From a virus: 64,000 bases of DNA. How positions within the stretch are numbered: position 1 is the first letter of the stretch; the number at the start of each line of letters is the position of its first letter. The notes beneath the pieces are model-generated. The model searched no databases, was not told the origin of the DNA, and saw only the letters and a program-made list of their open reading frames with translations. Position numbers and translations under genes: made by a program. This document shows, piece after piece, positions 6,004-22,971 of this stretch. The stretch lies in IMG/VR virus record IMGVR_UViG_3300035698_013504, positions 1-64,000 of that record; one strand, given 5' to 3'.

Positions 6004-6522
6004 ATGCTTAAATGGAGGCGACAACCTCACCCATGGTTTCAAGCGCTCATTCAGTGGGCGCTTTACAGGGCGATCATAAGATGTGATGAGCCCAGCTACT
6101 TCAACGGCACCCCGCTGAGCACGACCCTGGACTTGCATCATCTCAATGACCTGATCTTGCGGGGCATGTGTGCGCAGCTGTTGCTCGCGTCTAAGGGCGA
6201 TCTGTGTTACAGGCCTTCAGGGTATCATTTCTCGGTACTGTACCGTGTGATCTCGTGGGCGCTTAGGGGTATGCCGGGTGTTTTGACGACGGCTACGTCT
6301 AACATTTTCGCCCGATACTTTCCGGCTATCAACATCATATCCATCGTGGCCAGGCCGACGCGGCCCACGGACTACGACTTGCTGCCAACAGCTCTCCCTG
6401 CGCCTCACCACCTGATACCTGAGGTTGATAGAGATACGTGTCTCTTCGGCCTAAGGGAGCAGGACGACGAGGACGACGAAGAGCAGGTCGACGACATGGG
6501 CTACGCCTGGCCACGAAGGTGA
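6004..6522 (+). CDS. tandem paralogue family, copy 8 of 13, acidic tail (172 aa)
   Basis: MLKWRRQPHPWF then LIQWALYRAIIRCDEP, with LRGMCAQLLLASK and ARYFP. After RDTCLF it adds a strongly acidic stretch (EQDDEDDEEQVDDMG) and a basic end WPRR. The tail differs from all sisters and could modify a surface interaction; this is speculation. Confidence 0.74.
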   Translation: MLKWRRQPHPWFQALIQWALYRAIIRCDEPSYFNGTPLSTTLDLHHLNDLILRGMCAQLLLASKGDLCYRPSGYHFSVLYRVISWALRGMPGVLTTATSNIFARYFPAINIISIVARPTRPTDYDLLPTALPAPHHLIPEVDRDTCLFGLREQDDEDDEEQVDDMGYAWPRR

Positions 6523-6552
6523 GAACAATATCGAGTTCTAGAAAGGACACGC

Positions 6553-7035
6553 ATGCTAAACTGGAGAGTAAGACCACACCCGTGGTTTCAGGAGCTCGTT
6601 CAGTGGGCGCTTTACAAGGCGATCATACGGTGTGACAGGCCCGACTACTTTGACGGCCTGCCCCTGACCGCACGCATGGCTCTGCCGCATATGGTCGACG
6701 CCGACCTACGTCGTATGTGTACAGTGCTGCTACGTGGGTCAAAACGTGACGTATGTCTGCAACCCACAGGCTACCAGTTTGTGGTTCTGCGCCGTGTGAT
6801 TTCCTGGGTGCTCAACGATACCAGCGCTGTTGCTGCTGCCTCCGGCAACATTAACATCCGGTATTGCCCGCCAAGTGACGTCCTGCCTCTGGTGCTTAGT
6901 AGGCCGCAGGATGGAGATTACGAGTTGACGCTCGCGCTTCCACCGGCCCTTAACAGCTCGGACCCTGCGACTGATATGGAGCTCTGCCTCTTTACGGAGC
7001 CCCTTACCGACCACAACAACCACGACCCCTCATAG
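6553..7035 (+). CDS. tandem paralogue family, copy 9 of 13 (160 aa)
   Basis: MLNWRVRPHPWF then LVQWALYKAIIRCDRPDYF, the closest to an apparent family consensus. The middle is LRRMCTVLLRGSK and PTGYQFVVLRRVISWVL; the RYFP element has become RYCPP. It ends MELCLFTEPLTDHNNHDPS. Preceded by AGAAAGGACACGC. Confidence 0.74.
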   Translation: MLNWRVRPHPWFQELVQWALYKAIIRCDRPDYFDGLPLTARMALPHMVDADLRRMCTVLLRGSKRDVCLQPTGYQFVVLRRVISWVLNDTSAVAAASGNINIRYCPPSDVLPLVLSRPQDGDYELTLALPPALNSSDPATDMELCLFTEPLTDHNNHDPS

Positions 7036-7046
7036 AAAGGCTTATC

Positions 7047-7535
7047 ATGCTCAGATGGAGATTCATGCCTTACCCATGGTTCACCAGGGTCGTACACTGG
7101 GCGCTTTACCGCGCGATCCTGGAATGCACTGTGCCCTCCGAGTTTGCCGCTGAGACCCTCTCTCATGCACTGGGCCTCCCCCGTATGTGCGATGACAACA
7201 TCGCGCGGATGTGTACGGCGATCCTGATTGCGTCGAAGGATGAAACGCGGTGGTTTCAGCCCACCCCGTACCAGTTCGCCGTCATGGATCACATCTTCTT
7301 TTGGGTGTTTGAGGATTACGGCGAGGTGGTCGAAGAGGCATCAGACAACATCGTTAGGCACTACATTGCGCCTACACGTGAGTTGTCGTGCTACACAACC
7401 CGGGACCCGTCTCCGGGCGACTACATGCTAGAGGCTACAGGAGCGCCCCCGCGTAACCCCCGACTTTCCTCGGTGGATCCGCAGATCTGTCTCTTCCTTG
7501 AGTCCAATGAGGGTGAGAACAACGACTACGACTAG
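7047..7535 (+). CDS. tandem paralogue family, copy 10 of 13 (162 aa)
   Basis: MLRWRFMPYPWF then VVHWALYRAILECTVP. It keeps IARMCTAILIASKDE and PTPYQFAVM, but the RYFP box is changed to RHYIAP. It ends PQICLFLESNEGENNDYD. Eleven bases separate it from copy 11, with the ribosome site AGAAAGGACACTC. Confidence 0.73.
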   Translation: MLRWRFMPYPWFTRVVHWALYRAILECTVPSEFAAETLSHALGLPRMCDDNIARMCTAILIASKDETRWFQPTPYQFAVMDHIFFWVFEDYGEVVEEASDNIVRHYIAPTRELSCYTTRDPSPGDYMLEATGAPPRNPRLSSVDPQICLFLESNEGENNDYD

Positions 7536-7546
7536 AAAGGACACTC

Positions 7547-8056
7547 ATGCTTAGATGGAAGGTTACGGCCAACGAGTGGTTCACTGAGCTCGTAGAGTGG
7601 CTGCTCGGGTCCGCCGCTATGCGTTGTAATGCCCCGTGGTGTGTATCGCAAACGTCGTTCGTCGATCGCCTTGACCCGATAGCCATCGAAAGCGGTGACT
7701 TACGGGACATATGTCAACTGCTGTTGCGATCATCTACTGACAGCGCCCAGTATTGGGGGGTCACTGCGTATCAGCGGCTCATTGTCTACAGGCTGCTACA
7801 GTGGGGGCTTCATCATCATACCCATGCGGTGTACGACATCGCGCGGATATACTTCTTTGACACTACCTTCACCTTCCTCGCGGGGCAGGGCCCGTCGGAT
7901 GGGGATTTCCGTATGGTGTTGTCAGATGATCCGCCTAGAAACCTCATAAACGGGCATGATGAGGCGCGTCTATGCCTCATCGACGAATTCAACACTACAA
8001 GGCCTGATGGGAGCTTTCTCCCGCACTTCCAGGTCGGAACGGAACAGGAAGGCTAA
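7547..8056 (+). CDS. tandem paralogue family, copy 11 of 13, divergent (169 aa)
   Basis: MLRWKVTANEWF lacks the P-H pair; LVEWLLGSAAMRCNAPWC follows. Together with copy 12 it forms a divergent pair (EWLL in place of WALY, F-V-D-x-L, LRDxCxxLLR). The C-terminal box is ARLCLIDEFN. Divergence at the array's distal end suggests these are older copies. Confidence 0.7.
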   Translation: MLRWKVTANEWFTELVEWLLGSAAMRCNAPWCVSQTSFVDRLDPIAIESGDLRDICQLLLRSSTDSAQYWGVTAYQRLIVYRLLQWGLHHHTHAVYDIARIYFFDTTFTFLAGQGPSDGDFRMVLSDDPPRNLINGHDEARLCLIDEFNTTRPDGSFLPHFQVGTEQEG

Positions 8057-8059
8057 GTC

Positions 8060-8536
8060 ATGCTGAAGTGGGCTGTTGTACCGCACCAGTGGTTCGAGGA
8101 GCTCGTAGAATGGCTACTTGAGATAGCAATCGTAAGCTGTAAGCCGCCGCGGTGTCTCCGAGAGGGGACGTTCGTCGATATGCTCGGGCCGCTTAACGTA
8201 TCAGAAGAGGACTTACGTGACCGATGTCGACAACTGTTGCGCCTGTCCCGCTACCCCGGGGAATGGTATAGGATTCCGCCGGATCAGCTGTTGGTCGTCT
8301 ACCACTTGCTGCAATGGGGGTTTGAGCATCTCCCTCATGCCGCTAACAACATTGTTCAGGTGTATTTCCCCCGCGGCTTTCTAGAGGCCCCGCCGAGTTC
8401 TACCCTAGGCCCGGTTCCAAGTCTGACTTTCCGGGCCGGTCCGCCGCCCAGGAACCATACCCATCCCGGCGACGAGATGGAGAGATGTCTCAGGGGCGGC
8501 CGGGATGCGATGCGGCCCAGTATGGACCCGTCGTAA
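8060..8536 (+). CDS. tandem paralogue family, copy 12 of 13, divergent (158 aa)
   Basis: MLKWAVVPHQWF then LVEWLLEIAIVSCKPPRC. It starts four bases after copy 11, with GGAAGG inside the end of the upstream gene. It shares with copy 11 the LRDxCxQLLR and LLQWGxxH segments. It ends ERCLRGGRDAMRPSMDPS, an altered C-L-F box. Confidence 0.7.
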   Translation: MLKWAVVPHQWFEELVEWLLEIAIVSCKPPRCLREGTFVDMLGPLNVSEEDLRDRCRQLLRLSRYPGEWYRIPPDQLLVVYHLLQWGFEHLPHAANNIVQVYFPRGFLEAPPSSTLGPVPSLTFRAGPPPRNHTHPGDEMERCLRGGRDAMRPSMDPS

Positions 8537-8563
8537 TCGATACCAAACAGAGAGGGTACCACT

Positions 8564-9064
8564 ATGCTGATGTGGACACACAAGCCTCATCCGTGGTTCC
8601 AGGAGTTCGTACGGTGGTCGCTTGCGCGGGCCATCACTGAGATTGACGCTCCGGCGTATCTTAGTAGGCCGCCGTTCTCCGACTCCATAGGCATCCGCGA
8701 AACGGACGACGACGTACTTGTCGCTATATTCGGGGAGATGTTGAGTTGCTCGTTGATGGACCACACGTACCGGCTCACCGCGTACCAGTTCTCGCTTATG
8801 TACCGGGTGTTGCGGTGGTCTCTACGGACCTGCGGCCGTATGAACACTTCGGCGCTGCTTCAAATGCGGGGAATGTATATGCCGGGAACGGACTACTTGG
8901 CACTCTGCGCTGCTGCACGGCCGGAGCACGCAGAGATCAGAATGGCGTGGGATCCCCCCTGCCACAACCCGAGGAGTTCGACCGACGAGATGGCCGCGGT
9001 TATGCGTGGCTACAGGTCCTCCCTGGACATACCGACGTACATACACCGAGAGGAGGCGCACTAG
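8564..9064 (+). CDS. tandem paralogue family, copy 13 of 13 (166 aa)
   Basis: MLMWTHKPHPWF then FVRWSLARAITEIDAP. Conserved Cys27 is replaced by Ile, and the R-x-M-C helix reads LVAIFGEMLSCS. The YQFSLMYRVLRW segment is kept. The C-terminal Cys-Leu box is lost (MAAVMRGYRSS). Missing conserved residues suggest functional drift, although the frame is intact. Confidence 0.7.
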   Translation: MLMWTHKPHPWFQEFVRWSLARAITEIDAPAYLSRPPFSDSIGIRETDDDVLVAIFGEMLSCSLMDHTYRLTAYQFSLMYRVLRWSLRTCGRMNTSALLQMRGMYMPGTDYLALCAAARPEHAEIRMAWDPPCHNPRSSTDEMAAVMRGYRSSLDIPTYIHREEAH

Positions 9065-9377: not shown

Positions 9378-9400
9378 GTTAACCATTGGAGGGGCGAACT

Positions 9401-9823
9401 ATGCCCACGAACGTACGCTCGTATGTCGGCTGGGGTTTCAAGACCCAGATGCAGTATCTACGAGTACTTGAGACGGTTAAGGGCTGCGCACACACGGTGA
9501 AGGCTGCGCATGTGTTCTGCCCGGCCTGTGGCGTTAAGGCGGCGCGTGCCGTGATGGCGCCCCTCTCCGGCCTGAACTGGGCCGCTGAAACATTTGCAGG
9601 TAAGTTCCAGCTCTACAAGGGTCCAGACAGGGGCCTGCTGACTAACGTGTTCATTGGTGACTTCTGTGGTTTGGCTGCCAGCGCCTACGCTCCAAATGAG
9701 TGTGTGAAGAGACCTGTCGTAGAGGAGGACCCAGCCCTGCGCGACGCCATCCCGCGCGACGTAGCCAAGAACGGCAAGTTCGGCATTTGGCACTTCATCA
9801 CAAACCATGAGCCGCTGTGTTAG
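9401..9823 (+). CDS. zinc-knuckle paralogue 1 of 3 (140 aa)
   Basis: The start ATG at 9401 has GGAGGGG nine bases upstream. Residues ~27-45 hold a Cys/His cluster (GCAHTVKAAHVFCPACGVK) typical of a small zinc ribbon. The N-terminus RSYVGWGFKTQMQYLRVL and the end FGIWHFITNH recur in the next two genes. Tandem duplication of one ancestral gene is evident. No enzymatic motif is seen; nucleic-acid or protein binding is possible. Confidence 0.68.
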   Translation: MPTNVRSYVGWGFKTQMQYLRVLETVKGCAHTVKAAHVFCPACGVKAARAVMAPLSGLNWAAETFAGKFQLYKGPDRGLLTNVFIGDFCGLAASAYAPNECVKRPVVEEDPALRDAIPRDVAKNGKFGIWHFITNHEPLC

Positions 9824-9846
9824 CGGTAGAGAGGAGTACCTGACCA

Positions 9847-10251
9847 ATGGCCACCGTACGATCACTTGCTGGTTGGGGCGTGAAGGTACAGCTGCAAGAC
9901 TTGTTTGTTGTACATACCCGCCCCTCTTGTCTTCATGATGAGGCTGAGGGTAAGAACTTCTGCCCAGAGTGTGGCATGAAGGTACGTAAGATGGGCAAAC
10001 ACACTATCCCGGGCCTTAATTTGGACAACGGGGAGTTCGTAAATGGCCTTACGGTTGTAGACCTCTCTGATGGCCACGACACCGGAGACGTGTTCATTGG
10101 CCACTTTCACGCAATATCGTCTGATGGGGGCCGCGTTAAGGCGGTTCTGAACCCGAGCGTCGAAGAGTTGGAGAAAGAGGAGGCCTTTGATGCTCTCCCG
10201 AGCAGCGTGGAAACCTTCAACACCTTTGGCTTCTGGCACATCATCTACTAG
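9847..10251 (+). CDS. zinc-knuckle paralogue 2 of 3 (134 aa)
   Basis: RSLAGWGVKVQLQDLFVV opens the protein, followed by SCLHDEAEGKNFCPECGMK with a C-x-H-x(8)-C-x2-C arrangement. The centre has VDLSDGHDTGDVFIGHF, matched by DPTPGDEEGDVYIGYF in paralogue 3. It ends FGFWHIIY. The conserved G-D-V-(F/Y)-I-G block and the closing F-W-H mark the family better than the zinc site alone. Confidence 0.68.
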   Translation: MATVRSLAGWGVKVQLQDLFVVHTRPSCLHDEAEGKNFCPECGMKVRKMGKHTIPGLNLDNGEFVNGLTVVDLSDGHDTGDVFIGHFHAISSDGGRVKAVLNPSVEELEKEEAFDALPSSVETFNTFGFWHIIY

Positions 10252-10311
10252 GAGGCTAGGCATCCCGCCGGTTTCTTAGCTACACCACAAATAGAGAGGA
10301 ACACCAAACCA

Positions 10312-10743
10312 ATGGCCACCGCGCATTCGCTTGTTGGTTGTGGCATAAGAGTGTCGAGGAAACGGCTGTACGTGATGCAGACCGTTCCCTGCTGTCCCCA
10401 CGAGGAGGCGGAAGGCGAGAACTTCTGTCCGAAATGCGGCCTGAAGACCGGGGTGGAAGTGTTAATGCCCCGCTCCGGCTTTGACATGGACGAGGGGTAT
10501 TACCTGGATGATCTACGGATCATCGACCCCACCCCTGGCGATGAAGAGGGTGACGTATACATTGGCTACTTTGACGAACTGTCGTCTGACGGGGGCCGTG
10601 TCGAGCCTTCCGAGATGAACGGCGAAAACGAGGTAACCGAAACTTACCTTCGGGAAGGTGCCCACGATTGTAGCGGGTTACCCGATGAGGTGACTCGTCA
10701 CGCCGCGTTCGCTTTTTGGCACATCTTCTACTGGGAGGCATAA
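10312..10743 (+). CDS. zinc-knuckle paralogue 3 of 3 (143 aa)
   Basis: HSLVGCGIRVSRKRLYVM, then CCPHEEAEGENFCPKCGLK, G-D-V-Y-I-G-Y-F and FAFWHIFYWEA. AGAGAGGAACACC precedes the start. A 60-base spacer before it holds no clear signal. It is the closest relative of paralogue 2. Function unknown. Confidence 0.68.
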   Translation: MATAHSLVGCGIRVSRKRLYVMQTVPCCPHEEAEGENFCPKCGLKTGVEVLMPRSGFDMDEGYYLDDLRIIDPTPGDEEGDVYIGYFDELSSDGGRVEPSEMNGENEVTETYLREGAHDCSGLPDEVTRHAAFAFWHIFYWEA

Positions 10744-10747
10744 CGTT

Positions 10748-11227
10748 ATGACCGTTCTTGGAGTGCCGCACGAAGACCTGTCGCCCGGCGTTGGTGTTTG
10801 CGCAGGCGCGCCGCCCAACTACGTTAGGCTCGCGTTGAACATTGAGTTCCCGCTCATCCTAACAGAGGGCGAGGCGGGAGTCGTACAAACTCATTTGCGT
10901 AGCGAGTCGAGGATCGGCTCCGTCGTCTTGATGAAAGACGGTACGCATGAATTACACGCTGGGGTATGGGGGCTCAACTCCGAGGGTGACTACAGGGGTA
11001 AGGTCCCCTACAGCAACGACAGAGGTACTGGGGCGGTGCAATTCCACTACGAGCCGAATATCGAGCGCGTTTCGTTCTTTGTAATCGTCCCGGCGTCATT
11101 GTTACAGACAATCGGCAACGCGTGTACCCTTACGGAGCAGGGGGCGCCACAATGCCGCCCTGTCGACGACGAGGTAAACCACGACCCGGAGGAGGACCAG
11201 GATGTCGAAGAAATACCATCAACGTGA
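10748..11227 (+). CDS. hypothetical protein (159 aa)
   Basis: It begins four bases after the preceding stop; GGGAGG upstream lies within the end of that gene. It is a beta-rich-looking soluble protein (VRLALNIEFPLILTEGEAG, VSFFVIVPASLL) with an acidic tail (DPEEDQDVEEIPST). The tail is translated through the ribosome site of the next gene. No family recognised. Confidence 0.62.
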   Translation: MTVLGVPHEDLSPGVGVCAGAPPNYVRLALNIEFPLILTEGEAGVVQTHLRSESRIGSVVLMKDGTHELHAGVWGLNSEGDYRGKVPYSNDRGTGAVQFHYEPNIERVSFFVIVPASLLQTIGNACTLTEQGAPQCRPVDDEVNHDPEEDQDVEEIPST

Positions 11228-11594
11228 GCTGACGATGACGTTTCGTGTTCAAGTCAGCGGCCACACGTTGCCGCCGGAGGACCTACCCGCGGCCGTGGAA
11301 GCCTATCTCGCCTATTGGGCCGATGGCCGTAACCACCTGCACCGAGAGCTCATCGACGAGGGCGCTAGCAACGCAACGCTTTACGCAACCCGTATAGCCT
11401 TCGAGAAGGCGCTCTTCAAGAAGTACGGTAACGAGATGGTGCAGACATCGCCCAACAGCTCAACAAGCCGGGCGTATCTTGAAGCCAGCAGGGCCGTTGA
11501 GGAGATGCAGCCGTATGTGCAGGTCTTGGAAGACATAACCGTTGCGTGGTCTAGCCCGAAAGGAGACGAAGAAGATGGGAAAGGAGCCGATTGA
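11202..11594 (+). CDS. hypothetical protein (130 aa)
   Basis: The ATG at 11202 is supported by a long GGAGGAGGA eight bases upstream, although it overlaps the previous gene by 26 bases; an in-frame ATG at 11235 is an alternative. The sequence is mainly helical (LPAAVEAYLAYWADGRNHLHRELI reads as one amphipathic run). It overlaps the next gene by 20 bases. Function unknown. Confidence 0.6.
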   Translation: MSKKYHQRELTMTFRVQVSGHTLPPEDLPAAVEAYLAYWADGRNHLHRELIDEGASNATLYATRIAFEKALFKKYGNEMVQTSPNSSTSRAYLEASRAVEEMQPYVQVLEDITVAWSSPKGDEEDGKGAD

Positions 11595-12042
11595 GCACCT
11601 GACGTACGACAACAGCATGGGCTTGGCTAACCACCTAAGGTTCAAGCCCTTTATGCGTGGGAAGACGATTGAGGACGTGAGGGCGCTTGGCGACAACGAT
11701 ATCCTGCTTTACTTCACGGATGGGACGAAGATGTCGTTTCGTGGGACCGTGATTGAGCACCCGCGCGGCAATACGGTCGGCGAGCTCGGCGTAAGAGGAT
11801 TCATATCGATCATCACCACGCCCAAGTCCAGGATGAACAAGCCGCTGTACGAGAAGGTGGAGCCCCCGCACGATTCGCCGCTGGATCTAACGGACGACGA
11901 GTTGTCCGCGTTGATTAGGGCGTGTAAAGACTCTGACCGGGTTAACCCGGCCCCAAGACCGCTGTGGGACGCACGCGGGAAGGAAGCACAACGCAAGCTG
12001 ATTGCGGAGGAGAAACGCAGGTCGAGTACGCGTAGCGAGTAA
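11575..12042 (+). CDS. hypothetical protein (155 aa)
   Basis: The start ATG at 11575 follows AAAGGAGACG within the preceding gene. The N-terminal half looks like a small beta domain (LRFKPFMRGKTIEDV, ILLYFTDGTKMSFRGTVIEH); the C-terminal half is charged and ends in a basic helix (AQRKLIAEEKRRSSTR). It is the last gene before the Tas-like gene, 50 bases away. No family recognised. Confidence 0.62.
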   Translation: MGKEPIEHLTYDNSMGLANHLRFKPFMRGKTIEDVRALGDNDILLYFTDGTKMSFRGTVIEHPRGNTVGELGVRGFISIITTPKSRMNKPLYEKVEPPHDSPLDLTDDELSALIRACKDSDRVNPAPRPLWDARGKEAQRKLIAEEKRRSSTRSE

Positions 12043-12092
12043 GACGTATATCCAGAACTAGAGACCCGGATGTACCAATAGGAAAACCAAAG

Positions 12093-13106
12093 ATGACCGA
12101 CGAAATCAGAAGTGGCGCGTGGATGTTCGACGAAGAGGACCTGGAGGGCGCCGAGCTCCAGAGCTTTCTCACATGGTCCCGTAAGATGGCGCTGGAAGCC
12201 GCGGGCCTGTCCGACCGAGAGGCCGGGTTCATTGTGTACGGTTACTACATGACCCAGGACACCCGCAAGCGGGCCGACAACCAGATTCTCGCCCTCAAGA
12301 AGGCGGGCGATCCTCACGGACTCGTCTTGTGGGTCGCGCAGAACTCGAGACGTCTCGAGAACAACATCAAGGCCATGCTCGACAAGTACAGCGCGGCCCA
12401 GCCCCTTGGCGAGTGGGCGCGAGGCCTCATTGGTATGGGCCCTGTCCTCACGTCGGGACTCCTCGCCCACATCGACGTGACGGAGGCCAAGACTGCTGGC
12501 GCCGTTTGGCGTTTCGCTGGGCTTGATCCCTCGCAGGAGTGGGTGAGCGCGGTGAAGGCTGCGGCGTTTGTGGCCGAACATGGCGTTTCGCCCGATACAG
12601 CGGCGCTGGCCGCGGATAAGTTTGGGCTGAACACCAACACGATCCTGAAGTTTGCGCTGCACGATGCCGCTGGCAACCTGCGCAAGCTGACCGCCAAGAA
12701 CCTGGCCTCGTCGATCTCCAGGCGTCCGTACAACGCGCAGCTTAAGACGCTGTGTTGGAAGCTTGGCGAGTCCTTCGTCAAGGTGAGCCGCAAGGGTAGC
12801 CTGTACGGCGAGTTGTACGCCAATCGCAAGGCACTCGAGATTGAGCGCAATGACGCCGGAGAGTTCAAGGCTCAGGCCCACGGGATAGCGAAGAAGGTGC
12901 CCAACCACAAGCAGATCGCCTCGTACAAGGTCGGTCGCTTGCCGGACGGCCATCTGCACAGCCGAGCCAAGCGGCACGCGGTCAAGATCTTCTTGGCCCA
13001 CTTCCTCGAGAAGGGCCGTATCCTGAAGGACTTGCCGGTTGTGAAGCCCTACGCGATTACCATCTTGGGCCACGCCCATGAGATCACGTTGGCAGACGCG
13101 ACCTAA
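12093..13106 (+). CDS. Tas-like RNA-guide-binding protein with Nop/IS110-type domain (putative TIGR-Tas effector, nuclease-less)
   Basis: This 337-residue protein has the helix-hairpin-helix block that IS110-family transposases and Nop-domain proteins share: GLIGMGPVLTSGLLAHI from about residue 111, then WRFAGLDPSQEW (~138-149). It ends with a basic helical region (HLHSRAKRHAVKIFLAHFLE, ~286-306). No DEDD/RuvC motif, HNH motif or N-terminal nuclease domain is visible. A long 18-nt-step array begins 77 bases downstream. Known biology: Tas proteins have a Nop domain, bind ~36-nt dual-spacer RNAs from an adjacent TIGR array, and may lack a nuclease. Inference: this is a nuclease-less Tas that would bind DNA under RNA guidance. 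The main alternative is a plain IS110-like protein, but catalytic residues and transposon ends are not seen. The N-terminal ~50 residues are acidic and helical. Confidence 0.8.
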   Translation: MTDEIRSGAWMFDEEDLEGAELQSFLTWSRKMALEAAGLSDREAGFIVYGYYMTQDTRKRADNQILALKKAGDPHGLVLWVAQNSRRLENNIKAMLDKYSAAQPLGEWARGLIGMGPVLTSGLLAHIDVTEAKTAGAVWRFAGLDPSQEWVSAVKAAAFVAEHGVSPDTAALAADKFGLNTNTILKFALHDAAGNLRKLTAKNLASSISRRPYNAQLKTLCWKLGESFVKVSRKGSLYGELYANRKALEIERNDAGEFKAQAHGIAKKVPNHKQIASYKVGRLPDGHLHSRAKRHAVKIFLAHFLEKGRILKDLPVVKPYAITILGHAHEITLADAT

Positions 13107-13111
13107 TCGTG

Positions 13112-13181
13112 TCCTCCCCGCATCGCGCCTCCTCCTACGTAGCTAAGTTTATGCGACGTAGGTGCGCGCGTGCGGGGAGGT
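13112..13181 (+). promoter_or_regulatory. long hairpin between the tas-like gene and the array
   Basis: CCTCCCCGCA, then CGCGC, then CCTACGT (about 13113-13140) face ACGTAGG, GCGCGCG and TGCGGGGAGG (13155-13180). The result is an imperfect stem of more than 20 bp with a loop around 13141-13153 and a 5-base bulge. No T-run follows, so an ordinary intrinsic terminator is unlikely. It may be a leader structure, a processing signal for the array RNA, or a read-through control element. Confidence 0.6.
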
Positions 13182-13182
13182 A

Positions 13183-14530
13183 GATGTAATCAAGAGACCC
13201 GACTAGTATCAGAGAAAAAGAGTGAACCATCTTTCCTGATCGCACCAAGCGCGGCGAGTGAACCAGAAGCCGAGAGAGGACCAGTGGAACCGAATGAACC
13301 ATCTTTCCCGATCGCACCAAGCGCGGCGAGTGAACCAGAAGCCGAGAGAGTACCAACGCCGAAGAGTGAATCACAGTTGAGGAGAGTACCATATCTTGAT
13401 AGTGAGACAAGGCCTGATAGCGTACCAAACGTGGTAATCGAGCCATATCATCAGATAGTACCAAGTCCGCGGATCGAATCAACTCGAAAGACCCGCACCA
13501 AACTACTAGATTGAGACTACAGGCACCGACGGTATCATGACAGGCGATCGAGCCATGGGCCGAGACTGTAACAACTCACCCGAACGAGCCATAAGACCCA
13601 AGAGTACCACACGCCGGAAGCGAGACAGCACTCTCGAACGCACCATAGAGGTAGATCGAGCCACTAACAAGGAACGTAACACACCACATGTGCGAACCAG
13701 ATGAGGGACGTGTACCACATGAGCAGAGTGAAGCATAACGCGTGACCGTAACAACGTAGTAGATTGAGTCATGAGCCATGACCGTAACAAATCAGCAGAA
13801 CGAGCCGCAGGACGAGAGAGCACCAGCGATCTAGAACGAGACATCAACTCCGACAGCATCACAGATGGAGATCGAATCAAAGCGAATGACGGCGCCATAT
13901 ACCCTGAGTGAGTCAAGGAACGCTAGAGTACCATTACGCTTGAACGAACCATGAAGCGGGACAGTATCAGGCGATTTAAGTGAGACATCCCCTCCGACCG
14001 CATCATAAGCGAGGATCGAACCATACCCCCCGATTGTAACACCCCTTAAGAGTGAGACAAGTCCATGGACGTGTCCCAAATTGGATAATCGAACCACATT
14101 CACCGACCGTAACACCCCTGGCGAGTGAGCCATTCGCATACAGACTGTACCAGGTCTCTACAGCGAGACATCCATTGAGTGTGTACCAATATTCAGGATC
14201 GAATCAAACTGAAGACCCGCCCCAACCCCAATGAGTGAGCCAAGACCAGCGATAGTAACATGCCGATTGTGCGAGCCATGCCCCCTGATAGTACCAAATC
14301 CGCGGAACGAACCACCCCGTTGGAAAGTAACAGAAACAAGAAGTGAGTCATACAGAGCGAACGTAACAGTCGTGCAGAACGAACCATGAGAGACAAGAGT
14401 ACCAAGATCAAGAAGTGAACCATAACGTGGGAGAGTACCAAGCCCTTCGAGTGAACCACAACATACGACAGCATCATTCTTTAGGAGTGAGTCAAGTTGA
14501 GGGAGCGCACCATGAAAACAGATCGACTCA
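13183..14530 (+). repeat. TIGR-type array: 37 units of 36 nt, two alternating 10-nt motifs and 8-nt spacers
   Basis: Motif B (GANNGYAHCA, e.g. GATAGTACCA) and motif A (GANYGARNCA, e.g. GAGTGAACCA) alternate strictly, each followed by 8 variable bases. I place 37 B and 37 A motifs from 13202 to 14530, plus a degenerate A at 13183-13192. Register slips are few: one extra base near 13490, 13519 and 14078, and a 10-nt spacer at 14133-14142. No single frame stays open through it, so it is not a protein repeat. The 36-nt period with two spacers per unit matches the known length and dual-spacer design of tigRNAs. Same-strand transcription with the tas-like gene is assumed. Spacer targets are unknown. 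A CRISPR array is excluded by the 10-nt repeats. Confidence 0.85.
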
Positions 14531-14676
14531 CGTTTTATAGCGGGCCATGCCTGTCTACACATTTTCACAAGGCTACCGCGTATATGCGCGGTACGTCGAC
14601 CGCGCTTCTACACCGCGACACCCAGCCGCGGAAGCGCCTGGTATCTCTAGACGCTGGGCAAACGAAAGGTTGTCAT
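14531..14676. other. gap after the array
   Basis: No convincing gene. A possible further degenerate B half-unit (TAGCGGGCCA) lies at 14538-14547. ACCGCG-TATATG-CGCGGT around 14576-14593 can fold into a short hairpin that might end or process the array transcript. Nothing else is seen. Confidence 0.4.
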
Positions 14677-14928
14677 ATGTCCGAAAGAACGTTGGATACG
14701 CCGGAACCGCAGGCGAAGGTGTGTGAGCTCGTAAAGACGAAGGATGGCTTCGGCGGGTTCAAGAATCCCCGGCAGGTCAAGTGTCAGAACGTCGCCGCGT
14801 TCAACGCGACGGAGATCAACCCTGACCCGGTCGACGGCACCTACGGGTCCATGATGCTCTGCGGCAACTGCAGGGATAACATGGAACGCATCATGGGCGA
14901 AGGTTTCGCCGCGTTCTCACCCATCTGA
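14677..14928 (+). CDS. small cysteine-containing hypothetical protein (83 aa)
   Basis: The ATG at 14677 follows GAAAGG. Four cysteines are visible (VCELV, VKCQN, LCGNCRDN), the last as C-x2-C, consistent with a small zinc-binding protein. It opens MSERTLDTPEPQ. The gene lies alone between the array and a terminator. There is no evidence that it belongs to the TIGR-Tas locus beyond position. Confidence 0.6.
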   Translation: MSERTLDTPEPQAKVCELVKTKDGFGGFKNPRQVKCQNVAAFNATEINPDPVDGTYGSMMLCGNCRDNMERIMGEGFAAFSPI

Positions 14929-14937
14929 AAGGGACAC

Positions 14938-14966
14938 CCCGGAGTCCTTAAGGTCCGGGATTTTCT
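14938..14966 (+). terminator. rho-independent terminator
   Basis: CCCGGA and TCCGGG flank GT-CCTTAAGG, forming a nested stem, followed by ATTTTCTGTTT. It ends the short unit that carries the 83-residue protein. Confidence 0.75.
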
Positions 14967-14987
14967 GTTTACGTAGAGGAGGTCATT

Positions 14988-16244
14988 GTGCCCAAGATTG
15001 GTAGCATGGGCGTATCGAAGCACACGCAAGCGAAGCAGGAGACGCTTGGTAGCATCCTGCGCGCTTTCCTTTGTCGTATGGCTGGGGCATTCACGTACGT
15101 TGACCTTAACGGTGGCAACGGTGGCGTTGGTAAGGTTGACGGGAGCCCGCTGGTGTTTCTCGCCGCCGCCAAAGAGGCGCTTCGCCCCGAGCACGTGTGT
15201 CGTGCGTTCTTCATCGAGAAGAACATCAAGTCGCTTAGGCAGCTGACAGATCGAATCATTGGTATCCCGAGCCAGGCGTCGGTAACGCCGCTATTGGGTG
15301 ACCACAACGACATGTTGCCGAAGCTCAAGAAGGTCTTGGCGTCCGAGCCAGGGCTTATCTACTCGGACGAGTGTGGTACTCACGTACCGACAGACCTGCT
15401 GAACAAGCACGGCGAGTTGGGTACTAACGATGTCTTGATCCGCCTGCATCTGAACGCGTTCAGGCGGTCTCACAAGACTCTCTCGCTTGGTGACATGCAG
15501 ATCAAGCATTGGCTTGTCACGGAGCCCGAGGGAGGTCACGAGTGGATGTTCGCCTACGGAAGCAACCAATCCCGTTATCAGCTCTTCGGGGATCTCATGG
15601 TGCTCGGTTTCCACCCGTCGGATTCAGAAGCTGGTAAGGACATCATGCAGAGGCTGCCCGTTGTGGACGCGCCAAAGGTGATCAAGGTGTCTGTGGACAG
15701 CCCGCCCGATCTCAGTAGTACCTTCAAACAGAAGGGCCGGTATCTTACCAAGGATGAGCGCGCGTACATCCGGTCTTACTACGTGAGGCACCCAGGTGTC
15801 CAGCGTAGCCATATGGCTAAGCACTTCGGGTTGGCGCCGTGCACGATCAGACGTATCCTGGTTGGGCTTCCGAAGCTTCGGAAGCCGGTCAAAGCCACCA
15901 GCGGCTCAACGCCGGTGTCCTTGACGGAGCGGGGTACGGTTCGCGTGCATGCCCCTCGCATCACGGCATCCGGAGTCTTTGACGTCGAAAGGCTGGCGGC
16001 CGACGGGCTGCGCTCGAAGGATATCGTCGATAGGATCGGCGTGTCTCTTGCGACTGTGACCAGGATTCGCAGCGGTAAGCATAGGCTGCAGGTCTTGTGG
16101 GCGGCGCACGTGGTAGACGCTTCTCTGTCGGCTGAAGCGAAGATGGCTGCTCAAGCCCTGCTTCCTCCGAATCTTCTCCCGGACTCTGAGTCCGGTGTCG
16201 CGTCGATCGACTGGTCCCAGACTCATGACCCGGCGACCACCTAA
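14988..16244 (+). CDS. TcmP-like protein with two C-terminal helix-turn-helix segments (418 aa)
   Basis: GTG start, with GAGGAGG eight bases upstream. Residues ~9-90 follow the three-Cys-motif-partner (TcmP) pattern: HTQAKQETL, then AFTYVDLNGGNGGVG where the family has a D-G-F-A-G-P-G-like loop, DGSPLVFLAA and FFIEKNIKSL. Here the loop is L-N-G-G-N-G. The C-terminal half adds two DNA-binding-type segments: HMAKHFGLAPCTIRRIL (~270) and DIVDRIGVSLATVTRI (~345). TcmP proteins have a methyltransferase-like fold and unclear function. The added HTHs suggest DNA binding. Modification enzyme, regulator or defence-related protein are all open. It converges with and overlaps the next gene by four bases. 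Confidence 0.6.
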   Translation: MPKIGSMGVSKHTQAKQETLGSILRAFLCRMAGAFTYVDLNGGNGGVGKVDGSPLVFLAAAKEALRPEHVCRAFFIEKNIKSLRQLTDRIIGIPSQASVTPLLGDHNDMLPKLKKVLASEPGLIYSDECGTHVPTDLLNKHGELGTNDVLIRLHLNAFRRSHKTLSLGDMQIKHWLVTEPEGGHEWMFAYGSNQSRYQLFGDLMVLGFHPSDSEAGKDIMQRLPVVDAPKVIKVSVDSPPDLSSTFKQKGRYLTKDERAYIRSYYVRHPGVQRSHMAKHFGLAPCTIRRILVGLPKLRKPVKATSGSTPVSLTERGTVRVHAPRITASGVFDVERLAADGLRSKDIVDRIGVSLATVTRIRSGKHRLQVLWAAHVVDASLSAEAKMAAQALLPPNLLPDSESGVASIDWSQTHDPATT

Positions 16245-17674
16245 ACATCCCAGTCTACTGGGCCAACACGGAACAGGTGCGTGAAGGGGATCTTTGTGAT
16301 CCCCTCCACGTCCTGACCGGATACGAGTAGGACGCGGCGGCGTAGCTTGTCCGCCTCTTCATGTACGTTTTTTAGCCCTGCCCGCAGGTCAGACATCTCT
16401 TCGGAGGTGAAGGCGGGGCTAATTTCACTTTCTGGGTCATAACTACGCGCCATGGTCCCAGTATCGAACCCTGCGAGGTAAATAGGGTCACAACCCATGT
16501 GAAATGCGAGTGGAATGGCCGCAGACATCGCGGTGCCCTTCCCTAAGGGCTGTAACTCGCCCGCTGGGAGCCCGTAGAAGCCCTCGGACTGTAATCGGGT
16601 ACGAGGAGCCACTATTCGTGTCTCAAGCTGCTGTAGGTCCTTATACACCGCTTGGTGAGCAGATCCCGACACACACCCATAAGTAGGCCCGAAATCCCAT
16701 GAAGCCGCGTCGATATACCCATCATCTACGGATATGGTGATTTCTTTGGCCAAAGCGCCCAACATCAGCCTATTTGTCGACAATCCGGAGCGAATAAGGA
16801 AGCATCGCTGCCCCCGGTGGATATTTTCTATCCGATCTAGCGTTGGAAGGGGCGGTGTATCCAGTTTGAGCGCATTTAGGTCGGCAAAAGGCAGTACAGT
16901 GAGGTTTTTCGCCTTTGTCGCGTTAAACAGCTGGAACCCGCATTGCTTGGCGTAGGCGTTTAAGAGGACAAACGCGCAGGTGGAGGTGTCAATCGCTTCC
17001 TCGCCGTGTGTTCGTGCCCCTTCTTTGAGCGGCGCCACAGACTGCTCCGTGTTATGATCTTGGCCTACGATGTAGATAGGGTTACAGCCGAGGTACATGG
17101 CCAACTGTATCGCCGTGTCAGACACCACGTAGCCACCTGACCCAGCCAGATGTATCCGCTCGTCCAAAAAGTGGTTAATGTGCCCGCCTTGCAAGGATCT
17201 TACAGCTGAGGCCGGGTACTGCACCGTTAGAACGAGGTTATCTGGCAGTTCTTCCTTAAACCTCTTGGACACGTAGCTAGATACTACGAGTTGCGTGCTT
17301 GGGAAGCCCCGGGCGATGTCGAGCAGCTTTGGACACCACTGTCTGTTTGCATCGGTGATTACGTTGAAGGTAGGAGTCCAGCCGTATGTCTCATTCAGGT
17401 ACTTAGGCACCCCGTTGACGCCGATGGTGATCTCATTACGGAGCCAGTTCACGTCCTGCTCTTTAAGTGAGGGCCCTGACGCGATGATGAAGCAACGTTG
17501 ACCGTCGTGACGCGCTTTGATACCCCGGCTACGCTTCGATGTCATACCGAGAGCTTCAAGGCTCACGTCGACATCATACTCTTTACGTTTACGTTCCCGG
17601 AACCCTTTTAGGCGTAGTTCGAAGTTATTCCGCATACGATCGGTTTTGCGTTCAGACTCTTCTACATAATGCAC
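16241..17674 (-). CDS. double MptE/DUF115-like domain protein, minus strand (477 aa)
   Basis: The only clear minus-strand gene in the window. Start GTG at 17674; an ATG 13 codons inside is possible. Two similar Rossmann-like halves each begin QRCF-I-I/L-I-x-SG: QRCFIIASGPSL (~residue 59) and QRCFLIRSGLSTNRL (~300), each with a later block L-x-C-N/D-PIY-(I/L)-x-G-x-D. The S-G-P-S-L motif is typical of the MptE-like/DUF115 family, linked in bacteria to pterin pyrophosphokinase activity or to surface-glycan and flagellin modification. In a phage a sugar-related role is plausible but unproven. The second half has lost the exact GPS motif. Opposite orientation suggests a separately regulated cargo gene. 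Confidence 0.6.
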   Translation of the reverse strand: MHYVEESERKTDRMRNNFELRLKGFRERKRKEYDVDVSLEALGMTSKRSRGIKARHDGQRCFIIASGPSLKEQDVNWLRNEITIGVNGVPKYLNETYGWTPTFNVITDANRQWCPKLLDIARGFPSTQLVVSSYVSKRFKEELPDNLVLTVQYPASAVRSLQGGHINHFLDERIHLAGSGGYVVSDTAIQLAMYLGCNPIYIVGQDHNTEQSVAPLKEGARTHGEEAIDTSTCAFVLLNAYAKQCGFQLFNATKAKNLTVLPFADLNALKLDTPPLPTLDRIENIHRGQRCFLIRSGLSTNRLMLGALAKEITISVDDGYIDAASWDFGPTYGCVSGSAHQAVYKDLQQLETRIVAPRTRLQSEGFYGLPAGELQPLGKGTAMSAAIPLAFHMGCDPIYLAGFDTGTMARSYDPESEISPAFTSEEMSDLRAGLKNVHEEADKLRRRVLLVSGQDVEGITKIPFTHLFRVGPVDWDV

Positions 17675-18694: not shown

Positions 18695-18919
18695 ATGACG
18701 TTACTTGACTGGCTCATACTAGTCAGTTATGCCCTCATGTTCGTTTTCGTCATACTCAGTTTCCCGTCATGCAACAAGATATGGAATGACGCGGTAACCC
18801 CGGAGACACACCAACAAGGAGATCAGACACATGGGATTCAAATCGTTCCCAGCGCAACTCGCCGCGTGGATAGTCTTCGCGTTGGTGATCATTGGTATCG
18901 CAATCGCCGGTGGCTATAA
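18695..18919 (+). CDS. possible small membrane protein (74 aa)
   Basis: The N-terminus LLDWLILVSYALMFVFVILSF is one hydrophobic segment ending in FPSCNK. The last ~30 codons overlap the next gene in another frame and look arbitrary (ATRRVDSLRVGDHWYRNRRWL). Either the gene really ends in this overlap or it is a decaying relative of the membrane paralogues that follow. AGAGATG precedes the start. Confidence 0.42.
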   Translation: MTLLDWLILVSYALMFVFVILSFPSCNKIWNDAVTPETHQQGDQTHGIQIVPSATRRVDSLRVGDHWYRNRRWL

Positions 18920-19073
18920 GTTTGACGAGTGGGTTACGGCGGGGAACACCAAGACCTACAGAGCCCTCTTCGGAGGGTGGGTAAAGCAAACAAAAAATCC
19001 GGACAAGCTCACGTTTGATGAGTGGCACGCCCTCTGGAACGCGGGCGAGCTCAAGAGTTATGAGGAGGACTAG
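18831..19073 (+). CDS. small membrane paralogue 1 of 4 (80 aa)
   Basis: ATG with AAGGAG upstream. MGFKSFPAQLAAWIVFALVI starts a single transmembrane segment. The C-terminus carries the family signature GWVKQTKNPDKLTFDEWHAL. Four consecutive genes share this layout: N-terminal anchor, short linker, then a W-x-K-x-T-x-N-P-x-x-L-T-F-x-E-W tail, probably cytoplasmic. Function unknown. Confidence 0.68.
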   Translation: MGFKSFPAQLAAWIVFALVIIGIAIAGGYKFDEWVTAGNTKTYRALFGGWVKQTKNPDKLTFDEWHALWNAGELKSYEED

Positions 19074-19077
19074 TCAC

Positions 19078-19338
19078 ATGGGATTCATAGAAGGCCTTAA
19101 GAAGGTAACCTTCACTACCGCGTTGTCGGCGGTGGCCGTGATTGTTGTCACTATCGCTATCGCGTATGCTCCCGGTTGCCTCATCGCTAATAGGAGGGCT
19201 AACCTCCAGCGGGTACACAACGCCTACACAGGGTGGTCGAAGATAACCGGCAACCCGGACAAGCTCACGTTTGAGGAGTGGTGCGTCTTGCGCAGCTCGC
19301 GTGGACTTCCGTGGCCGCCGAGCAAGGAGAATCGCTAA
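19078..19338 (+). CDS. small membrane paralogue 2 of 4 (86 aa)
   Basis: Starts four bases after copy 1 with GAGGAGGAC upstream. It begins MGFIEGLKKVTFTTALSAVA, has a transmembrane segment with APGCL at its end, and a tail GWSKITGNPDKLTFEEWCVL. The stop overlaps the start of copy 3 (TAATG). Confidence 0.68.
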   Translation: MGFIEGLKKVTFTTALSAVAVIVVTIAIAYAPGCLIANRRANLQRVHNAYTGWSKITGNPDKLTFEEWCVLRSSRGLPWPPSKENR

Positions 19339-19634
19339 TGGGTTTTCGAACTAGTCTCGTGTGTCGTATTCTTCGCTCGTGTAAGCGGGAAGCCGGGGTG
19401 GTTATACCTGTAGCGTTTTTCCTCTGTATTGTCTTTGGCCTCTTCTTCGGTCTCAACTCGTGTCTGTCTAATCTGACGGTCACTGCGGGCCAACTACGAG
19501 CCCACTGGGATAACATTGACGCCGAGACTTTCCAGGCGCGGACGAAGCAGACGGGCAACCCTAGTGAACTAACGTTCAGGGAGTGGAAACTACTCAAGGA
19601 GGCCGAGCTGCTACCGGCTAAGGAAGGAGACTGA
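19338..19634 (+). CDS. small membrane paralogue 3 of 4 (98 aa)
   Basis: TAATG coupling with copy 2. MGFRTSLVCRILRSCKREAG is basic and cysteine-bearing before the segment VVIPVAFFLCIVFGLFFGL. The tail RTKQTGNPSELTFREWKLL retains the signature with Ser-Glu in place of Asp/Lys. It ends EAELLPAKEGD. Cysteines beside the membrane might be lipid-modified or disulfide-linked; not demonstrable here. Confidence 0.66.
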   Translation: MGFRTSLVCRILRSCKREAGVVIPVAFFLCIVFGLFFGLNSCLSNLTVTAGQLRAHWDNIDAETFQARTKQTGNPSELTFREWKLLKEAELLPAKEGD

Positions 19635-19637
19635 AGC

Positions 19638-19913
19638 ATGGACGGCTTTGATTCCCAGACGCAGTCGTTGAAGCGTGCGCTCATCATTGTGGCGTGCATG
19701 TTTATCATCGTGGCCATTTTCGTTTTGGCGTGCCACGCTCACGCGATGGGGCGCGACGCTGCGCGACGTTCGAGCGCGGTCCACGCCCCGATGGCACAGG
19801 GTATTGACATGGACGCTTTTCATGGGTGGTTGAAGCTAACCGGTAACCCGAAGGAGCTCACATTCGAGGAGTGGTTCGCGTTAAAACACGTGGACCTGCT
19901 CCACAGCAAGTAA
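19638..19913 (+). CDS. small membrane paralogue 4 of 4 (91 aa)
   Basis: AAGGAGACTGAAGC precedes the ATG. The membrane segment is RALIIVACMFIIVAIFVLAC; the tail is GWLKLTGNPKELTFEEWFAL. It lacks the MGF start of the other three. Last gene of the quartet; the next gene follows after 29 bases. Confidence 0.66.
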   Translation: MDGFDSQTQSLKRALIIVACMFIIVAIFVLACHAHAMGRDAARRSSAVHAPMAQGIDMDAFHGWLKLTGNPKELTFEEWFALKHVDLLHSK

Positions 19914-21941: not shown

Positions 21942-22238
21942 ATGCAAACACCTTGCGTAGCATTCGTAGACCGAACGGACAATTACGATTACATCGCTGG
22001 CAGGAGGCAGGATCCATCAGGACCGTGCCAGCATTCTGCTCGAATTGTACTCAACGGCAAAAAGTTGTGTGCGGCACATGCCGGTAAAGCCCTGGAGCTG
22101 TTGGCTCGTAGGACCGGGGGCCCAATCAGCGTTCACGCCGAACTCGGGGACCTACGTCCCACAAGAGCAACACCTCTGAGGACCGAGGTGTCGCTTATAG
22201 GGAGCAGAAATAGCCATGATCGACCACTTCGCCGGTAA
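21942..22238 (+). CDS. small Cys/His protein (98 aa)
   Basis: The ribosome site GGAGGAG lies inside the preceding gene. Visible are C5, then GPCQHSARIVLNGKKLCAAHAG, a C-x-H ... C-x2-H pattern compatible with one zinc ion. It overlaps the next gene by 23 bases; its last residues (GSRNSHDRPLRR) are written over that gene's start. Function unknown. Confidence 0.58.
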   Translation: MQTPCVAFVDRTDNYDYIAGRRQDPSGPCQHSARIVLNGKKLCAAHAGKALELLARRTGGPISVHAELGDLRPTRATPLRTEVSLIGSRNSHDRPLRR

Positions 22239-22971
22239 GTACCAGTTCCTGTCGAACTTCTACCCCTGTACGGTCTTGATCGATGGCGATATCGCCAAGT
22301 CGGTTGAGCATGGGTATCAGGCGTGGAAGGCGAAGGATCCGGAGGTTCGTAGCAGCATCTTAATGGCCCCGACCCCTGGCGCCGCGAAGAGACTTGGCTC
22401 CAAGGCGGAACTCAGAGACAACTACTCCGACAACGCCCGCATTTGCGTGATGGAGCAGTTGCTTTACCAGAAGTTCAACCGTGAGCCGTTCCGCACCCAG
22501 CTCATCGATACCGGCGCCGAAGAGATTGTTGAAGGTAACAACTGGGGCGACGACTTCTGGGGCGTCTGTGACGCGGCCAAAGGTAAGAACCTCCTCGGCA
22601 AGATGCTTATGGCGATTCGGACCGCGGCCCTGGCCGAGGGACCGTACGACGGGTACACGCTGCTGTGGACCCACGACAAGATGGACCCGGTCAAGGTGTA
22701 CCTCAAGGTTCCTAACCAGTCCAGGGTTATGCTGTGCGAGTTGGATCCCACCGAGTACAAGACGGGTCTCCTGTGTATCGAGATGGACTTGATGCAGGAC
22801 GCACAGCGGGAGGCGAAGTACAAGGTGGACCTTCTTACCGGGTACTTGAACACCGCGAGTTGTGGTGTGACGGGGTGCCCCGGCCCGGATGGCGAATACA
22901 GCAGCTTGGCGATATGCCCGTCCTGTAAAGTCATCTCCGACGTCCGTCATGTTATGTTACGGAAAGCCTAG
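22216..22971 (+). CDS. NADAR (YbiA-like) domain protein with C-terminal zinc ribbon (251 aa)
   Basis: Residues 1-~140 carry the NADAR signatures: YQFLSNFYPC, SVEHGYQAWKAK, EEIVEGNNWGDDFWGVC and GKNLLGKMLM. Known members hydrolyse N-glycosidic bonds, acting in riboflavin-intermediate clean-up (YbiA) or removing ADP-ribose from modified bases or proteins. Residues ~150-251 are extra and include CGVTGCPG and CPSC, a possible zinc ribbon not usual in YbiA. In a phage a counter-defence role, reversing ADP-ribosylation, or handling of modified nucleotides is plausible. The start overlaps the upstream gene; AGGGAGCAG lies upstream. Confidence 0.85.
   Translation: MIDHFAGKYQFLSNFYPCTVLIDGDIAKSVEHGYQAWKAKDPEVRSSILMAPTPGAAKRLGSKAELRDNYSDNARICVMEQLLYQKFNREPFRTQLIDTGAEEIVEGNNWGDDFWGVCDAAKGKNLLGKMLMAIRTAALAEGPYDGYTLLWTHDKMDPVKVYLKVPNQSRVMLCELDPTEYKTGLLCIEMDLMQDAQREAKYKVDLLTGYLNTASCGVTGCPGPDGEYSSLAICPSCKVISDVRHVMLRKA

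What the first reader, a model, noticed from the sequence alone, without database searches (positions are those of the whole stretch)
12093..14530. A TIGR-Tas-type locus: Nop/IS110-like protein plus a 37-unit dual-spacer array
Seen: a nuclease-less protein with the G-x-G-P...LLAxI...AGLDP block, followed on the same strand by a 36-nt-period array of two alternating 10-nt motifs and 8-nt variable segments. Known: TIGR-Tas systems pair Nop-domain Tas proteins with arrays processed to 36-nt dual-spacer RNAs, found in phages and parasitic bacteria. Inference: this phage carries a binding-only Tas with 37 guides. With no nuclease, it may silence genes (host, rival phage or its own) rather than cut.
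Basis: partly seen in the sequence, partly recalled or inferred. Interest (0 to 1): 0.96.

Follow-up and report, generated by a model that had tools for sequence, protein, structure and literature searches.

The report
Phage RNA-guided DNA-binder with 37 guides
A large uncultured phage carries a TIGR-Tas locus, a recently described kind of RNA-guided system: a DNA-binding protein without a cutting part plus a bank of 37 two-part RNA guides, and the sequence itself shows where each guide begins and ends.

Summary
A 337-aa protein (12093-13106) is followed by 37 units of mostly 36 nt (13183-14530): edge repeat, 8-nt spacer, loop repeat, 8-nt spacer. The protein's closest solved relatives are TasR and TasH, ahead of IS110 transposases; no nuclease domain. 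Of 100 loci with this gene (window and near-copies included), 90 have their strongest periodicity at 34-38 nt. This is TIGR-TasA, a kind published in 2025, in a 200.9-kb phage record.

Not found in the paper's main text: (1) edge repeats vary within this array but are compensated: base 7 of each edge is Watson-Crick with base 4 of the NEXT edge in 37 of 37 units (18.5 expected; maximum 29 in 20,000 permutations), marking each unit's ends without RNA data; (2) about 55 extra residues, predicted helical, in the Nop domain, in 20 of 100 sequences; (3) in 41 of 90 distinct tas genes the stop codon runs in register into a box-C half-edge; here a strong hairpin stands between gene and array.

No target above chance in the phage's own record, related loci, or (five guides of a relative) a Halomonas genome. 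RNA-guided DNA binding is inferred from published relatives.

The parts
12093..13106 (+). tasA-like gene, 337 aa, Nop-fold protein without nuclease domain
12543..12722 (+). codons 151-210: region with about 55 extra residues compared with most relatives; predicted four helices (153-163, 167-177, 181-189, 201-208), block pLDDT 94-98
13113..13180 (+). strong RNA hairpin between tasA stop codon and the array
   Evidence: -45.7 kcal/mol for 13107-13185, z -6.05, 0 of 200 shuffles as stable
13183..14530 (+). TIGR dual-repeat array, 37 units (38 edge and 37 loop repeats)
13188..13192 (+). 3' half of the first, 5'-degenerate edge repeat (bases 6-10): start of the first predicted tigRNA
   Evidence: unit 1 also has the 7-4 pair
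13220..13363 (+). diverged 72-nt duplication: units 2-3 and units 4-5
14521..14530 (+). last edge repeat; its 3' half departs from consensus
14574..14593 (+). short inverted repeat after the array, no T run; weak
   Evidence: z -2.18 for 14515-14600; no terminator-like site between the array end and 15191 on +

Best explanation
This is a TIGR-TasA locus. SHOWN here: a Nop-fold protein closest to TasR and TasH and lacking a nuclease domain, beside 37 dual-spacer units whose ends are marked by compensated pairing between consecutive edge repeats. INFERRED from published TasR, TasH and TasA work: the array is transcribed on the + strand and cut inside each edge repeat, between bases 4 and 7, into tigRNAs of about 36 nt by a host RNase with TasA's help; a TasA dimer holds one tigRNA closed by the 7-4 and 8-3 edge pairs; spacer A pairs with one strand and spacer B with the other strand of adjacent target halves. 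INFERRED with less support: without a nuclease the complex acts as a roadblock that silences transcription or replication of competing or host DNA.
For: Profile and fold. Arrays beside the gene in relatives. Edge 7-4 pair 37 of 37 Watson-Crick (GC 19, AT 18) against 17 of 36 within one edge and 17 of 36 two units on; permutation mean 18.5, maximum 29 of 20,000. Edge 8-3 pair 25 of 37 plus 5 G-U against permutation mean 14.1; 2 of 20,000 permutations reach 25. In 75 other arrays, at junctions where neighbouring edges differ, next-edge pairing 137 of 209 (same-edge 27) for 7-4 and 141 of 215 (same-edge 54) for 8-3. The paper's TasR structure has the same two edge pairs, between different edge repeats (PMC12045711 sections 8 and 49). 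Own targets not seen, which fits action on other DNA.
Against: No RNA or binding data. No target found anywhere, so even the class of target is unknown. Among the 75 other arrays 7 favour same-edge pairing and 10 tie, 33 favour next-edge, 25 are uninformative. 7 of 37 units here lack a standard 8-3 pair. No terminator-like site directly after the array. The edge repeats do not show the literal UG box D of the paper.
Confidence: 0.72

Rival explanations
1. TIGR-TasA regulates the phage's own genome (expression timing, copy number) with guides aimed at its own sequence.
For: A nuclease-less effector could bind its own genome without harm; the paper lists gene regulation as one possibility (section 10).
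Against: In the predicted geometry the 200.9-kb record, outside the array, has 1, 9 and 178 matches at 1, 2 and 3 mismatches; three permuted controls have 1/13/163, 0/14/178 and 1/11/176; no exact match. Short or seed-only pairing is not excluded.
Confidence: 0.12
2. A box C/D snoRNP-like RNA-guided system acting on RNA.
For: Shared Nop fold (Nop5 1nt2 Z 7.3; Prp31 3siv Z 8.5) and box C-like repeat ends.
Against: Far closer to the DNA-targeting TasR and TasH (Z 18-19). The paper reports no TasR activity on RNA substrates (section 7). No fibrillarin-like match among the nearby proteins scanned.
Confidence: 0.05
3. The array is a decaying or non-functional repeat and the gene an IS110-type transposase relative.
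For: Pfam Transposase_20 (0.0023, below its cut-off) and PHROG 4285 named transposase (5e-32); degenerate repeats.
Against: 37 of 37 compensated 7-4 pairs need selection on each unit; no DEDD part; profile and fold prefer TasR and TasH.
Confidence: 0.03

Closest known systems
TIGR-TasA with dual-repeat array (Faure et al. 2025, PMC12045711)
   Same: Solo Nop-fold protein, alternating edge and loop repeats of 10 nt, short paired spacers, 5'-truncated first and 3'-truncated last edge, edge pairs between consecutive edges.
   Different: 37 units (paper: most often 5 to 15); edge repeats vary within the array but are compensated, whereas the paper calls repeats conserved within a locus; about 55 extra residues in the Nop domain; hairpin between gene and array; no terminator-like site found directly after it.
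TIGR-TasR / TasH (solved structures 9mty, 21kl and relatives)
   Same: Nop domain and coiled coil (Z 18.4 and 19.4); 8-nt spacers as the paper gives for the SpTasH array.
   Different: No RuvC or HNH domain.
IS110-family transposases with bridge RNA (IS621 8wt6, ISCro4 9t56)
   Same: Nop-like RNA-binding part (Z 14.2).
   Different: No DEDD domain; a long guide array in place of one bridge RNA (nature of IS110 guides taken from the paper).
Box C/D snoRNP proteins (Nop5, Prp31)
   Same: Nop fold (Z 7.3; 8.5).
   Different: No N-terminal domain; array format; DNA target expected.

Membership tests
TIGR-TasA (dual-repeat) | Nop-domain protein of the Tas group | tested here: met
   TasR 1.2e-21, TasH 1.8e-15; Z 18-19
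TIGR-TasA (dual-repeat) | No nuclease domain | tested here: met
   only Transposase_20 in Pfam; about 38 residues before the Nop part
TIGR-TasA (dual-repeat) | Adjacent array of two alternating 8-12-nt repeats with two short spacers | tested here: met
   10-nt repeats; spacers 8 nt x69, 9 x4, 10 x1
TIGR-TasA (dual-repeat) | 5'-truncated first and 3'-truncated last edge repeat | tested here: met
   by degeneracy of the outer halves
TIGR-TasA (dual-repeat) | Rho-independent terminator after the array (paper: typical) | tested here: inconclusive
   no terminator-like site on + between 14530 and 15191 (simple scan); weak hairpin at 14574-14593
TIGR-TasA (dual-repeat) | Repeats conserved within a locus, box C CCA and box D UG (paper: may diverge) | tested here: inconclusive
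   C9 A10 strong, base 8 mixed, no UG start; repeats degenerate but compensated
TIGR-TasA (dual-repeat) | Processing to 36-nt tigRNAs bound by Tas | not testable with these tools
   covariation supports the unit; no RNA data
TIGR-TasA (dual-repeat) | tigRNA-guided DNA binding with each spacer on one strand | not testable with these tools
   no target found
IS110 transposase | N-terminal DEDD domain | tested here: not met
   model aligns to IS621 from residue 125 on, with about 38 residues in front
IS110 transposase | Transposon ends around the gene | not tested
   no empty site or end comparison was made
Box C/D snoRNP | Fibrillarin and L7Ae partners | tested here: inconclusive
   only nearby and selected proteins were scanned; no such match among them

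The most novel reading that the evidence does not exclude
A TasA variant in which the extra, possibly helix-turn-helix, domain adds a second surface for DNA or a partner, making an RNA-guided regulator; each of the 37 guides carries its own edge pair (G-C or A-U), which could tune how well that guide is matured or loaded. In about half of the wider family, maturing the first tigRNA would cut the tas message at its own stop codon, a built-in feedback that this phage has uncoupled with a hairpin.
Probability: 0.15. Interest if true: 0.78.

Novelty: new variant of a known kind. Interest (0 to 1): 0.55.

Why it matters
The 2025 paper leaves open the targets, the role of nuclease-less TasA, the maturation of tigRNAs and the growth of arrays (section 10). 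An array whose repeats drift yet stay compensated defines the guide unit from sequence alone, and 37 guides in one phage are a large set for target hunting once the host is known. The extra domain and the stop-codon overlap in relatives are directly testable.

Tried and rejected
Targets. Own record: 38 spacer pairs (the last reaching past the array end) in four geometries, no excess over permuted pairs. Window and relatives: 1,320 guides (1,150 distinct) against 925,280 held bases, four geometries together: 1 exact match versus 6, 9 and 11 in three permutations; one-mismatch 165 versus 158, 168 and 175 (the arrays of near-copy loci not in my table were left unmasked). Halomonas host of L103: 5 of its 7 guides searched. 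Four exactly with gap 0-2: no match. One with gap 0 and up to two mismatches: no exact match, 21 inexact ones in that genome against 8 for the reversed control (9 against 8 and 3 against 4 in the other two genomes of that call), not followed further. The geometry was deduced from the paper's 8-nt 3' overhangs.

Codon-like tracking. In L030/L032 some spacer differences lay 3 nt apart, as if guides followed coding targets. Over 43 distinct spacer pairs with 2-3 differences, distance 3 occurred in 19 of 85 position pairs against 15.2 expected: not supported.

Spacer hypervariability. Spacers diverge more than repeats (L030/L032 0.122 against 0.029) but near the fourfold-site rate of tas: L030/L032 0.122 against 0.076, L170/L172 0.121 against 0.134, L145/L147 0.107 against 0.198, L075/L147 0.173 against 0.083. 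L153/L155 (0.269 against 0.023) and L149/L155 (0.000 against 0.117) suggest recombination between gene and array. Positive selection is not shown.

Extra domain as helix-turn-helix: best Pfam hit of that kind Xre-like-HTH, 0.0013, in 2 of 15 members, not in the window's own; the profile against solved chains gave weak hits, the best 0.0015, several of them designed proteins. Left unassigned; it could not be folded alone (both prediction jobs used). With its columns masked, a tree of 96 of the 100 sequences needs 10 changes for its presence and places the window next to L081, which lacks it: loss, transfer and repeated gain are not separated.

Other. Rfam: no match in 11000-16500. Phage records: none by protein or with the first 24 kb. 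No ParB-like Pfam match among the neighbours scanned.

Full report
WHAT IS THERE. The window is bases 1-64000 of a virus record of 200,903 bases. No tRNA gene was found in the record; the first 24 kb have no megablast match among 50,697 phage records and the Tas protein has no tblastn match there. Of the proteins scanned, some match RNA polymerase beta, DNA ligase and DNA polymerase families. It is a large phage of unknown host. At 12093-13106 lies a 337-aa gene, then a 79-nt gap counted from the last sense codon, then 37 array units to 14530.

PROTEIN. A 15-sequence profile finds, among solved chains, TasR (9mty, 1.2e-21) and TasH (21kl, 1.8e-15) before IS621 (1.1e-4) and ISCro4 (0.0012). The AlphaFold2 model from 41 aligned relatives has mean pLDDT 89.5 and pTM 0.84 and aligns to TasH at Z 19.4 (217 residues, 3.2 A), TasR at 18.4 (193 residues, 2.4 A), IS621 and ISCro4 at 14.2, Nop5 at 7.3. 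About 38 residues precede the aligned part, so there is no room for a nuclease or DEDD domain. By the paper's naming it is a TasA.

EXTRA DOMAIN. Between W150 and R211 the window protein has a stretch absent in the first 14 relatives. In the compared region it has 75 residues where most relatives have 20; 20 of 100 sequences (window and near-copies included) have 68 to 85 (one further row, L112, is partial). The stretches align with each other at 19-39% identity to the window's. It is predicted as four helices at block pLDDT 94-98. No family could be assigned and its history is unresolved.

ARRAY AND UNIT ENDS. Edge repeats read GANYGARNCA; bases 3, 4, 7 and 8 vary from edge to edge, so the array tests its own processing. 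Base 7 of edge n and base 4 of edge n+1 are Watson-Crick in 37 of 37 units (GC 19, AT 18). Within one edge the figure is 17 of 36, with the edge two units on 17 of 36; permutations give a mean of 18.5 and a maximum of 29 in 20,000. Bases 8 and 3 pair in 25 of 37, plus 5 G-U; the permutation mean is 14.1, maximum 26, and 2 of 20,000 reach 25. So the second pair is strong but imperfect. In 75 other arrays (near-copies dropped, 1,179 units), at junctions where neighbouring edges differ, next-edge pairing holds in 137 of 209 (same-edge 27) for 7-4 and 141 of 215 (same-edge 54) for 8-3. By array 33 favour next, 7 favour same, 10 tie and 25 have no such junction. Some arrays were probably parsed with edge and loop exchanged (for example L077, L084, L085), which lowers these counts. 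The unit thus runs from the 3' half of one edge to the 5' half of the next, as in the paper's TasR structure. The paper reports covariation of the edge pair across TasR arrays and states that the pairs lie between different edge repeats, but also that repeats are conserved within a locus; here they drift and are compensated unit by unit.

FAMILY CONTEXT. Scans kept 14 viral loci, 80 of 286, 10 from genomes, 8 and 80 of 108. Of 100 loci analysed, window and near-copies included, 90 have their strongest 30-44-nt periodicity at 34-38 nt with score 0.45 or more (36 nt 82, 34 nt 4, 38 nt 3, 35 nt 1); the ten others are L006, L039, L041, L042, L044, L049, L081, L095, L107 and L112, of which L006, L049 and L081 have 36 as second best. 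84 arrays were parsed: 61 downstream of the gene, 19 upstream, 4 other. The other 83 parsed arrays have a median of 15 units and at most 34, so 37 is the longest here.

STOP CODON. In 41 of 90 distinct tas genes the stop codon is followed in register by a box-C half-edge (TAA/TGA-RNCA 16, TAA/TGA-NCA 14, TAG-NCA 11); by a hand estimate chance would give about 7. Some of the 41 have their parsed array elsewhere, so this counts sequence context, not verified first units. If cuts fall at the covarying boundary, maturing the first tigRNA would trim the tas stop codon. The window differs: its stop is TAA at 13104-13106, followed by a hairpin at 13113-13180 (-45.7 kcal/mol, z -6.05). Five of the 61 downstream arrays, window included, start more than 60 nt after the gene.

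EVOLUTION OF GUIDES. Loci with identical Tas share all or nearly all guides (L026/L027 24 of 24, L074/L080 19 of 20). Pairs at 92-99.7% protein identity share few: L025/L026 (99.7%) 5 of 24-25, in the same order and in the 3' half; L091/L097 1; L092/L098, L087/L094 and L046/L049 none; L030/L031/L032 8 to 12 of 22-26. In L030/L032 homologous spacers differ by substitutions in place, and L031 has inserted blocks. Divergence is near the fourfold-site rate, so drift plus unit turnover suffices. Whether turnover is faster at one end was not tested formally.

TARGETS AND FUNCTION. The predicted target is spacer A, a gap of 0-2, then the reverse complement of spacer B. No excess was found in the own record, in 925 kb of related loci, or for five guides of a relative in a Halomonas genome (with one mild inexact excess told under Tried and rejected). 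The roadblock role is inference: no nuclease, the paper's two-strand targeting and DNA bend, and no own targets favour action on other DNA.

LITERATURE. PMC12045711: abstract, sections 4-10, 24, 44 and 49 and term passages. Other papers: search listings only. In the main text 'stop codon', 'helix-turn-helix', 'HTH' and 'jumbo' have no occurrence; large Nop insertions are mentioned for a clade of inactive TasR in CPR bacteria with stem arrays. Supplements were not available, so this clade may be listed there.

VERDICT. A genuine TIGR-TasA locus of a published kind, with within-array compensation, an uncharacterised extra domain and a hairpin between gene and array: a new variant of a known kind.

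Noticed in passing
window 6004-9064: Six tandem paralogous genes of about 160-170 aa (25-48% identity to each other by blastp), function unknown.
   Followed up: partly
window 9386-10743: Three tandem paralogous genes (26-41% identity), function unknown.
   Followed up: partly
window 18831-19913: Four small paralogous genes sharing a motif like GNPxxLTFxEW.
   Followed up: partly
window 16241-17674 (-): Protein matching Pfam MptE-like (4e-19) and a PHROG named alpha-2,3-sialyltransferase (1e-9).
   Followed up: no
window 22216-22971: NADAR-domain protein (Pfam 2e-20).
   Followed up: no
window 47270-49120: RNA-polymerase-beta-like protein (PHROG 3015, 4.9e-23).
   Followed up: no
L012:7409-7844, L014:6986-7318, L070:948-1175, L072:3822-4049: Related arrays with 34-nt or 38-nt units, so unit length varies in the family.
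   Followed up: partly
L108:5774-5786 and similar places in relatives: tas stop codon merged with the first half-edge of the array (for example TAG followed by CCA), seen as sequence context in 41 of 90 distinct tas genes.
   Followed up: partly
L017:19350-19540: Pro/Thr/Glu-type coding repeat, by eye, that mimics a 30-42-nt periodicity.
   Followed up: no
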